Source: an uncultured bacterium
GTDB taxonomy: Bacteria; Patescibacteriota; Patescibacteriia; Patescibacteriales; UBA12465
Assembly (NCBI GenBank): GCA_903874345.1
Contig: CAIQRY010000068.1
Span: 1-35,428 of the forward strand
Length of the DNA stretch: 35,428 nucleotides
Direction: 5' to 3'
Within the stretch, counting starts at the first letter, position 1, and every line of letters begins with the position of its first letter. A program made the position numbers and the translations under genes. Of this stretch, positions 18 to 1,923 are shown in pieces. Below the pieces are notes generated by a model. That model was given only the letters and a program-made list of their open reading frames with translations, was not told where the DNA came from and searched no databases.

Positions 18-170
18 ATGTTAACAATAGAAAAAATGAAAGAGTTAGTCGGCCCGAAATCCTCAGAATATACCGACGCTCAATTAATGGAAGTTAGCCG
101 TGATTTGTATCAATTATCTTATTTGGCTTTTGAGTATTATAAACGCCATATTAATCCAACCTTAATGTAG
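18..170 (+). CDS. Small hypothetical protein (50 aa: MLTIEKMKELVGPKSSEYTDAQLMEVSRDLYQLSYLAFEYYKRHINPTLM) upstream of a serine recombinase
   Basis: Hand-translated ATG-to-TAG frame. Charged, helical-looking composition; ATATATG start context like other genes in the window. Not in the supplied ORF track. Confidence 0.55.
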   Translation: MLTIEKMKELVGPKSSEYTDAQLMEVSRDLYQLSYLAFEYYKRHINPTLM

Positions 171-177
171 CTTAATC

Positions 178-205
178 TTGTAAAAAAGAGAATTTATGCT
201 AATAT
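178..205 (+). promoter_or_regulatory. Candidate promoter TTGTAA-N16-TAATAT with predicted start near 212
   Basis: -35-like TTGTAA (178-183), 16-nt spacer, -10-like TAATAT (200-205). Predicted TSS coincides with the first base of the structured region at 212. Confidence 0.4.
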
Positions 206-211
206 CTTTGA

Positions 212-345
212 TGGACACAATTAATATGGCAAATACTCACTCAAGTCATAATGACGGCGAGATGTCGTTTTGAGATAAAGGGAGCAGTAGCTGTTTCAAT
301 TGAGTGTTTGCTTAATTGTGTCCAACAGTTTACTGCTCTCTTTTT
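212..345 (+). ncRNA. Candidate structured non-coding RNA or leader with pseudoknot topology and terminal U-tract
   Basis: P1: 212-224 with 312-324 (13 bp perfect) and 229-239 with 301-311 (11 bp, one G.U). P2: 240-244 with 270-274 and 250-255 with 264-269. P3: 280-289 with 331-340 (10 bp, one G.U) and 291-293 with 326-328. TTTTT follows at 341-345. Confidence 0.5.
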
Positions 346-360
346 ATTAATTTTAAATTT

Positions 361-1917
361 ATGACTAAAAAAGGAATTATCTATTACCGGGTTTCGACTG
401 AAGATCAGGCTCAATCCGGTGTTAGCTTAGAACAACAGAAAAATGCTTGTTTGGAATACGCTGGTAAGCACGATATTGAAGTTGTCGAAATGTTCCACGA
501 TGACGGCGTGTCGGCGAAAACTATTGAACGGCCGGGGCTAAAAGAATTATTAAAATACTGTGTGAAAAACGCCAAAAATCTTGATTGTGTAATCGTTTAT
601 AAAATCGACCGCTTGTCTCGAAATGTTAATGACTATACCGGCATCCTGGCGTCGCTCTATAAACTTAAAATCAAGTTTATATCGACGACAGAAACGGTTG
701 ACGAAACGCCGAGCGGTCGGTTAGTTGGAACGATTGTTGCCTCGGTCGCTCAATTTGATAATGATGTTAGGAGCGAAAGAATCGCCTCTTGTATGCACGA
801 AAGGATAAAACAAGGCGTTTGGTGTTTTAAAGCCCCCTTTGGCTATTTAAACGCTCGAGACGCTCAAAATAAAGCGATGATAATTTTCGATAAGGTGCGT
901 ATGCCTTTAATCAAATTAGCCTTTGAACGATTTGCGACCGGCTTATATCAAATTGAACAAGTCAGGAAGATGTTAAATGATAAAGGCTTTAGAACGCATA
1001 AAGGCCGAGAGTTAACCCTACAGACACTCCATGAATTACTTCGAGAAAAATTCTATATTGGGATTATGACGGTTAAAGGCCAAGAATATGCCGGCAGTCA
1101 TGAAAAATTTATTGATGAGCGGATTTTTTGGCAGTGTCAGAAATTATTTAGAAACGCCGATAAGGGCGATTGTATTTCTTTAGGCCGAGTTAATGAAAGT
1201 TTTCCTCTAAGGCATTTTGTAGTTTGCCCGCATTGTGGCAGTCCGCTAACCGCTTGTTTTTCAACCGGTAAGATGGGCATTAAATATCCCTATTATAAAT
1301 GCTATAACAAAAAATGCGGTCGGTTAAAATCAATTACTAAAAAAGAAGTTGAAGACAGTTTTTCGCTTGGTTTAAAAAAGATTAGTTATCAGCCCTATAT
1401 GGCCAAGGCCGTTAAAAGAGCGATTATCGAAGTTTATGATGAGAGAAAGAATGAGATATATAGTAATTTTGGTTCGCTCAAGTCGCAACTGGAAAATTTA
1501 AAAGCCGAGAAAGATAAATTAATCGAGATGAAGAAAAAGGAATTATTGGATGATGAGGATTTTAGGGAAGAAATGGATAAGGTAAAAATTATGCTGTCCG
1601 ACAAACAGGAAAGACTCTTGAATTGTAAAGATGACGGTTTTGACGTTAAAAAGAATCTCGATAAAGTTTTTGATTTTATGTGCGATCTGCCAGACTTTTA
1701 TGAAAAGGCTGATTATGCCACTAAACTCAAAGTTCAGAGTTCGATTTTTAAGGAAAAGCCCTCTTTTAATTTTTACACATTTCAAACTCCGAAATTATCG
1801 CCAATCTTAGAAACAAAAAGAGACTTGGAATGCTCCAAATCTCGTAATGTGGACCCTAAGGGATTCGAACCCTTGACCTCCTGCTTGCAAAGCAGGCGCT
1901 CTAACCAGCTGAGCTAA
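361..1917 (+). CDS. Large serine recombinase / site-specific integrase (resolvase N-terminal domain, recombinase domain, zinc ribbon, coiled coil)
   Basis: IYYRVSTEDQAQSGVSLEQQ (catalytic Ser region), VYKIDRLSRNVNDY, zinc-ribbon CPHCGSPL...CYNKKCGR, C-terminal coiled coil. ATG at 361 preferred over the TTG at 316. Frame closes inside the antisense tRNA gene. Confidence 0.92.
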   Translation: MTKKGIIYYRVSTEDQAQSGVSLEQQKNACLEYAGKHDIEVVEMFHDDGVSAKTIERPGLKELLKYCVKNAKNLDCVIVYKIDRLSRNVNDYTGILASLYKLKIKFISTTETVDETPSGRLVGTIVASVAQFDNDVRSERIASCMHERIKQGVWCFKAPFGYLNARDAQNKAMIIFDKVRMPLIKLAFERFATGLYQIEQVRKMLNDKGFRTHKGRELTLQTLHELLREKFYIGIMTVKGQEYAGSHEKFIDERIFWQCQKLFRNADKGDCISLGRVNESFPLRHFVVCPHCGSPLTACFSTGKMGIKYPYYKCYNKKCGRLKSITKKEVEDSFSLGLKKISYQPYMAKAVKRAIIEVYDERKNEIYSNFGSLKSQLENLKAEKDKLIEMKKKELLDDEDFREEMDKVKIMLSDKQERLLNCKDDGFDVKKNLDKVFDFMCDLPDFYEKADYATKLKVQSSIFKEKPSFNFYTFQTPKLSPILETKRDLECSKSRNVDPKGFEPLTSCLQSRRSNQLS

Positions 1918-1923
1918 GGGCCC
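1850..1923 (-). tRNA. tRNA-Ala (anticodon UGC)
   Basis: Reverse complement GGGCCCTTAGCTCAGCTGGTTAGAGCGCCTGCTTTGCAAGCAGGAGGTCAAGGGTTCGAATCCCTTAGGGTCCA folds as a 74-nt cloverleaf: acceptor GGGCCCT/AGGGTCC, anticodon loop TTTGCAA, T-arm AAGGG-TTCGAAT-CCCTT. 3' CCA not encoded. Confidence 0.95.

What the first reader, a model, noticed from the sequence alone, without database searches (positions are those of the whole stretch)
212..345. Candidate undescribed structured RNA with pseudoknot topology upstream of a serine recombinase
Three sets of complementary segments lie in about 130 nt. P1: 212-224 with 312-324 (13 perfect bp) and 229-239 with 301-311 (11 bp, one G.U). P2, nested inside P1: 240-244 with 270-274 and 250-255 with 264-269. 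P3: 280-289 with 331-340 (10 bp) and 291-293 with 326-328. P3 starts inside P1 and closes outside it, so the order is A-B-A'-B', a pseudoknot or a switch between exclusive helices. A promoter-like TTGTAA-N16-TAATAT predicts a start at 212, exactly where P1 begins. P3 is followed at once by TTTTT, so it also reads as an intrinsic terminator 16 nt before the recombinase ATG. Possible roles: an attenuator/antiterminator controlling integrase expression, a stand-alone element-encoded ncRNA, or a recombinase-binding DNA structure. It matches no riboswitch or ribozyme consensus I can recognise by eye.
Basis: partly seen in the sequence, partly recalled or inferred. Interest (0 to 1): 0.78.

Follow-up and report, generated by a model that had tools for sequence, protein, structure and literature searches.

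The report
Two-state RNA switch before integrase gene
A 135-base stretch in front of an integrase gene on a mobile element of a tiny Patescibacteria cell encodes an undescribed RNA that can fold into two mutually exclusive shapes, one of which should stop transcription before the gene; relatives of it sit in front of the same kind of gene across the phylum.

Summary
The helices are real and at the stated places, and they belong to an RNA family with no Rfam 15 match. I collected 47 members from Patescibacteria. Every whole-genome covariance-model hit on the gene strand lies upstream of a large serine recombinase (LSR), usually 0-40 nt from its start codon. A sigma-70-like promoter ends about 6 nt before P1 in 85% of members (11% in shuffles).

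Covariation is strong: 39 of 48 pairs change on both sides, and G.U outnumbers A.C tenfold, so the sense strand folds. The RNA therefore has two exclusive states of nearly equal energy (median difference -1.1 kcal/mol): a long-range P1/P2 hairpin, or a P3+P4 rod followed by a U-tract. A switch explains the A-B-A'-B' order; no pseudoknot is needed.

Most likely it is a terminator/antiterminator attenuator limiting LSR expression, also releasing a small RNA. The trigger is unknown. In two lineages an opposite-strand gene separates RNA and LSR, leaving a trans role open. Guide-RNA, antisense-RNA and replication-origin rivals were tested and not supported. There is no transcript data.

The parts
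178..183 (+). -35 box TTGTAA
   Evidence: Sequence; best promoter match ends 7 nt before 213; same spacing in 40 of 47 members
200..205 (+). -10 box TAATAT; predicted transcript start about 212
   Evidence: not shown experimentally
212..224 (+). P1a 5' arm (state A), pairs with 312-324
   Evidence: covariation of P1a in 15 of 16 pairs of the family
228..239 (+). P1b 5' arm (state A), pairs with 301-312
   Evidence: inner arms covary among the close copies and in 9 of 9 pairs of the family
240..274 (+). P2 hairpin: 240-244/270-274 and 250-256/263-269
   Evidence: P2 covariation in the second subfamily
277..295 (+). P3 5' strand (state B), pairs with 324-328 and 330-343
   Evidence: P3 covariation with P3 left out of the alignment model
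297..318 (+).
   Evidence: z = -4.05 in the window, mean -3.6 over 39 members; covariation
301..324 (+). 3' strand shared by P1 (state A) and P4 (state B)
324..343 (+). P3 3' strand
341..345 (+). U-tract following P3: intrinsic-terminator signature
   Evidence: Sequence; T-rich tail in the family
361..1917 (+). Large serine recombinase (518 aa), regulated gene in this reading
   Evidence: Pfam Resolvase, Recombinase, Zn_ribbon_recom; PHROG integrase
1849..1923 (-). tRNA-Ala(TGC): integration target; the recombinase frame ends inside it

Best explanation
The segment is transcribed from its own promoter as a 5' leader of about 135 nt that has two mutually exclusive folds. In state A the 5' half pairs with the 3' half (P1a, P1b, P2); this ties up the strands that would make P4 and should block P3, letting RNA polymerase read into the recombinase gene. 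In state B the 3' half folds on itself (P4) inside P3, giving a rod of about 28-32 bp followed by a U-tract, an intrinsic terminator 15-20 nt before the recombinase start codon. The balance between the states sets how much recombinase is made, and a small RNA is released when transcription ends. Shown here: the helices, their covariation, the fixed promoter spacing, sense-strand folding, near-equal predicted energies and the association with recombinase genes. Inferred: termination in vivo, which state is regulated, and the trigger. The trigger (recombinase protein, another factor, or simply a built-in low read-through) is unknown.
For: Both states are supported by covariation although they share strands: P1a/P1b/P2 in 30 of 31 pairs, P3 in 9 of 17 pairs without being modelled, P4 in 14 of 15 pairs on 34 sequences and folding of the P4 segment at mean z -3.6. 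Predicted energies of A and B are nearly equal (median -1.1 kcal/mol; 39 of 47 within 6). Promoter fixed 6 nt before P1. All forward genome-wide hits have a serine recombinase downstream. In 37 of 46 readable members only 0-40 nt separate RNA and gene, too little for another promoter. G.U 121 versus A.C 12.
Against: No transcript, termination or read-through data. In the L034/L049 lineage and in L204 an opposite-strand gene lies between RNA and recombinase, yet the RNA is intact. U-tracts are short in some members, e.g. L205, L207, L208. No ligand, protein or antisense trigger was identified. Energies come from a nearest-neighbour model, not measurement. The P4 covariation count uses an alignment fitted to P3+P4, and on the eight close training sequences alone it was not better than shuffles.
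Confidence: 0.62

Rival explanations
1. A stand-alone small RNA, ended at P3, that acts in trans on the recombinase (as RNA partner or inhibitor) or on its mRNA; the position before the gene reflects linkage rather than a leader role.
For: RNA stays intact where an opposite-strand gene separates it from the recombinase (L034, L049, L204), with a compensated P3 change between L034 and L049. Own promoter and own terminator-like end.
Against: Nearly always placed 0-40 nt before the recombinase in the sense direction with no room for another promoter. Two covarying exclusive folds, one ending in a terminator, are what an attenuator needs.
Confidence: 0.2
2. A true pseudoknot: P1 and P3 form together as a tertiary fold with a structural role, for example blocking ribosome access to the nearby start codon.
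For: P1 and P3 both covary and cross; P3 ends a few nt from many start codons.
Against: The P1' strand has a second covarying partner (P4) nested in P3, which a static pseudoknot would not need. With P2 formed only about 5 nt link P3 to P2, so forming all helices at once would demand a sharp fold-back (inference).
Confidence: 0.1
3. Attenuator controlled by an antisense RNA, as in pT181-type plasmids.
For: Same long-range-helix versus terminator logic; about twenty members carry a rolling-circle Rep upstream.
Against: No conserved antisense promoter that would cover the 5' half; the excess near -10 is the reverse of the sense -10 box, and a mild excess before the gene lies in AT-rich DNA.
Confidence: 0.04
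4. A DNA element: a single-strand origin or hairpin of a rolling-circle element, or paired protein-binding inverted repeats.
For: Rolling-circle Rep (Pfam REP_ORF2-G2P) upstream in about twenty members; strong fold also with DNA parameters.
Against: Many members lack that Rep; G.U far exceeds A.C on one strand; promoter fixed to P1.
Confidence: 0.03
5. A guide RNA that directs the recombinase to its tRNA target (bridge-RNA-like).
For: It is a structured RNA encoded beside a DNA recombinase in a mobile element.
Against: RNA complementarity to its own tRNA junction is no better than to other elements' junctions (25.7 versus 24.8; 13 loci). Elements in tRNA-Ala and tRNA-Glu share the same conserved segments.
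Confidence: 0.01

Closest known systems
pT181 repC / pIP501 repR leader attenuators (from general knowledge)
   Same: A long-range helix in the leader pre-empts a terminator hairpin made from its own 3' strand, just before the gene of a mobile element.
   Different: They control replication initiators and are set by an antisense RNA; here the gene is a serine recombinase and no conserved antisense promoter was found. No sequence relation was tested or claimed.
Terminator/antiterminator riboswitches and amino-acid attenuators (from general knowledge)
   Same: Two exclusive folds, one an intrinsic terminator before the gene.
   Different: No separate aptamer domain and no conserved leader peptide seen; no Rfam match.
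STAXI motif (PMC2864571)
   Same: Candidate RNA near genes for DNA-manipulating proteins including integrases.
   Different: STAXI is described as a repeated pseudoknot; here a single two-state element tied to serine recombinases, with no Rfam match.
IS110 bridge RNA (from general knowledge)
   Same: Structured RNA beside a recombinase gene of a mobile element.
   Different: Different recombinase class; no guide-target complementarity.

Membership tests
Transcription attenuator (terminator/antiterminator leader) | Two mutually exclusive folds sharing a strand | tested here: met
   P1/P2 versus P3/P4, both covarying, near-equal energies
Transcription attenuator (terminator/antiterminator leader) | One fold is a hairpin followed at once by a U-tract, upstream of the gene in the sense direction | tested here: met
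   P3+P4 then T-rich tail in most members, 37 of 46 within 40 nt of the gene; weak tails in some, gene separated in nine
Transcription attenuator (terminator/antiterminator leader) | Transcript starts upstream of the folds | tested here: met
   Promoter ends 3-9 nt before P1 in 40 of 47, 11% in shuffles; predicted only
Transcription attenuator (terminator/antiterminator leader) | Termination and regulated read-through occur | not testable with these tools
   Needs in vitro transcription or RNA-seq
pT181-type antisense-controlled attenuator | Antisense RNA covering the 5' half of the leader | tested here: not met
   No conserved antisense promoter
Any Rfam 15 family | Covariance-model match at the gathering score | tested here: not met
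   Only tRNA found in the window and 12 homolog loci
H-type pseudoknot RNA | Crossing helices coexist in one molecule | tested here: inconclusive
   Both helices covary, but P4 offers a competing partner
Bridge/guide RNA of a recombinase | Segments complementary to the element's own target | tested here: not met
   Own 25.7 versus other 24.8 in 13 loci, tRNA side only
Single-strand origin of a rolling-circle element | Tied to the rolling-circle Rep and acting as single-stranded DNA | tested here: not met
   Many members lack the Rep; G.U bias and fixed promoter

The most novel reading that the evidence does not exclude
The RNA is a trans-acting partner of the large serine recombinase, binding it and gating integration or excision through its two folds; its adjacency to the gene then reflects co-inheritance of a two-part recombination system.
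Probability: 0.12. Interest if true: 0.93.

Novelty: new variant of a known kind. Interest (0 to 1): 0.74.

Why it matters
Large serine recombinases are central to mobile-element biology and are genome-engineering tools, and I found no described RNA control of them in the papers searched. Here such a control appears across a phylum known mostly from metagenomes, with a switch whose two states can both be read from covariation. It gives a testable rule for when these elements make their integrase, and a compact new regulator. If the RNA acts in trans it would add an RNA component to a recombinase class thought to be protein-only.

Tried and rejected
Phage and plasmid collections: no match, one query each. 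Guide-RNA test against tRNA junctions: negative. Conserved antisense promoter: not found. A leader peptide from the ATG at 211 was judged by eye: shared by close relatives, broken early in L010, no ATG in L043, so dropped. Weak Rfam microRNA-type hits dismissed. Rep-linked single-strand origin dropped because many members lack the Rep. Exact direct repeats marking the far end of two elements: none of 13 nt or more within 20 kb. A search outside Patescibacteria could not be run, so the host range is not known. Literature searches found nothing describing it.

Full report
OBSERVATION. The window is an entire 35,428-nt contig (C68) of an 835-kb genome. Close relatives of the recombinase are in Candidatus Falkowbacteria-type assemblies, so the host is taken to be a member of the Patescibacteria. 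The RNA fold of 205-350 is -46.8 kcal/mol, z -5.6, and the P1/P3 arrangement scores 66 against a maximum of 43 in 200 shuffles.

HOMOLOGS. Four close copies (L002, L008, L009, L010) share the promoter, P1, P2, P3 and U-tract; the inner arms of P1 differ in sequence but keep pairing. A covariance model from the five sequences (R1) found four distant relatives in other families, all directly upstream of a serine recombinase and all with the same arrangement in different sequence. A scanner for crossing helices followed by T-runs, applied to 104 recombinase upstream regions, gave 16 scores of 50 or more against 0 of 297 shuffles, and revealed a second subfamily. A model of that subfamily (R2) hit 23 of 381 genomes of the class and four more genomes elsewhere in the phylum. 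All 26 forward hits of the first search and all four new ones of the second have a serine recombinase downstream. Eight of those 26 are the sequences R2 was built from or their genome copies, and some others had already been seen through their recombinase; the rest were found by RNA alone. On a recombinase tree the RNA label is strongly clustered but needs about eight changes (one row there, L220, was labelled 'none' although it carries the RNA).

COVARIATION. On a 30-sequence alignment made with R2, which does not model P3, 39 of 48 pairs change on both sides (P1a 15/16, P1b 9/9, P2 6/6, P3 9/17); 94.5% of cells pair, against 40-54% when the partner is slid by 1-3 columns. G.U pairs outnumber A.C mismatches 121 to 12 (P3 alone 61 to 5). 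Only one strand benefits from G.U, so the folded molecule is the recombinase-sense strand, most simply RNA. P1 and P2 counts lean towards the model used for alignment; P3 does not.

THE MISSED HELIX. Folding with the P1 5' arm blocked shows that the strand between the two arms of P3, which is the 3' half of P1 and P2, makes its own hairpin, P4. Of 39 members tested, 35 fold better than shuffles by z below -1.5, mean -3.6. On 34 sequences aligned to a P3+P4 model, 14 of 15 P4 pairs change on both sides, 85% of cells pair (shuffle maximum 71.6%), and G.U to A.C is 86 to 8. On the eight close training sequences alone P3+P4 covariation was not clearly above shuffles, so this evidence rests on the broader, model-fitted set and on the folding test. 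The same strand thus keeps two partners. State A (P1a, P1b, P2) and state B (P3 enclosing P4) exclude each other, and their predicted energies are close: median difference -1.1 kcal/mol, 39 of 47 within 6 kcal/mol. In the window A is favoured by about 5 kcal/mol; in L002, L009, L010 and L075 B is the minimum.

ANATOMY OF EXPRESSION. In 40 of 47 members the best sigma-70-like promoter ends 3-9 nt (mode 6) before P1, against 11% in shuffles, so the transcript should begin with the P1 5' arm. P3 is followed by a T-rich tail, strong in most and short in some. Of 46 members with readable downstream sequence, 37 have 0-40 nt between RNA and recombinase start; five have a small same-strand frame of about 75 aa between, one (L200) a 227-nt gap, and three an opposite-strand frame.

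MECHANISM. The best reading is an attenuator: A lets polymerase pass, B terminates. What is shown is at sequence level; termination, read-through and trigger are inferred. The main evidence against a purely cis role is the L034/L049 lineage and L204, where an opposite-strand gene intervenes. L034 and L049 differ in P3 by a compensated change (GGGCAG/CTGCCC versus GAGCAG/CTGCTC; sequences), which suggests that pairing is still maintained there. This leaves a trans-acting small RNA open.

RIVALS. Guide RNA: no own-target complementarity in 13 loci. Antisense-controlled attenuator of the pT181 kind: similar logic, but no conserved antisense promoter. Replication origin: about twenty members carry a rolling-circle Rep upstream, but many do not. 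Pseudoknot: not excluded, but not needed.

KNOWN OR NEW. No Rfam 15 family matches the window or 12 homolog loci except tRNA. Papers on candidate structured RNAs mention integrase-linked motifs such as STAXI, a repeated pseudoknot (PMC2864571), but nothing like this was found. The library holds open-licence papers only and supplementary files were not searched, so absence there is weak evidence. I rate it a new RNA family of a known kind (attenuator-like switch) with a new kind of target gene. Its presence outside Patescibacteria was not tested by genome search.

Noticed in passing
window 1849-1917: The recombinase reading frame runs into the opposite-strand tRNA-Ala gene and ends there, so its last residues are encoded by the integration target; frames in L009 and L010 run into tRNA-Glu in the same way.
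   Followed up: partly
L012 1501-1525: A 25-nt perfect match to the 3' end of the recombinase gene (window 1800-1824) lies in DNA with no recombinase match nearby; perhaps an att remnant.
   Followed up: no
L002 7-2427: The related element in L002 carries an RloB-like defence gene and a rolling-circle Rep upstream of the RNA.
   Followed up: no
L201, L203, L206, L209, L211, L215, upstream of the RNA: A shared frame of about 200 aa (M..TCE..ISIFWLK..GYL, with Cys pairs) directly precedes the RNA in several elements; not identified.
   Followed up: no
window 18-170; L030, L075, L080, L081, L082, L342: Small frames of about 50-60 aa precede the RNA in many elements; the window's (MLTIEKMKELVG...) has no Pfam or PHROG match.
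   Followed up: partly
G000:C37:8272-8398 (L198): The window's own genome has a second member of the RNA family before another recombinase.
   Followed up: no
L200, between RNA (428-555) and recombinase: The 227-nt gap holds an inverted repeat (AGCCATTAGGCTTGTAGG ... CCTACAATCTAATGGCT) that looks like a small inserted element.
   Followed up: no
window 277-345, minus strand: The A-tract before P3 gives a U-tract on the other strand, so the hairpin may terminate transcription both ways; covariance models also find it weakly in reverse.
   Followed up: no
second-subfamily members, between P1b and P2 5' arms: A conserved U-run (UUUUUUAUA) lies in the 5' half of most members but not in the window's close relatives; role unexplained.
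   Followed up: no
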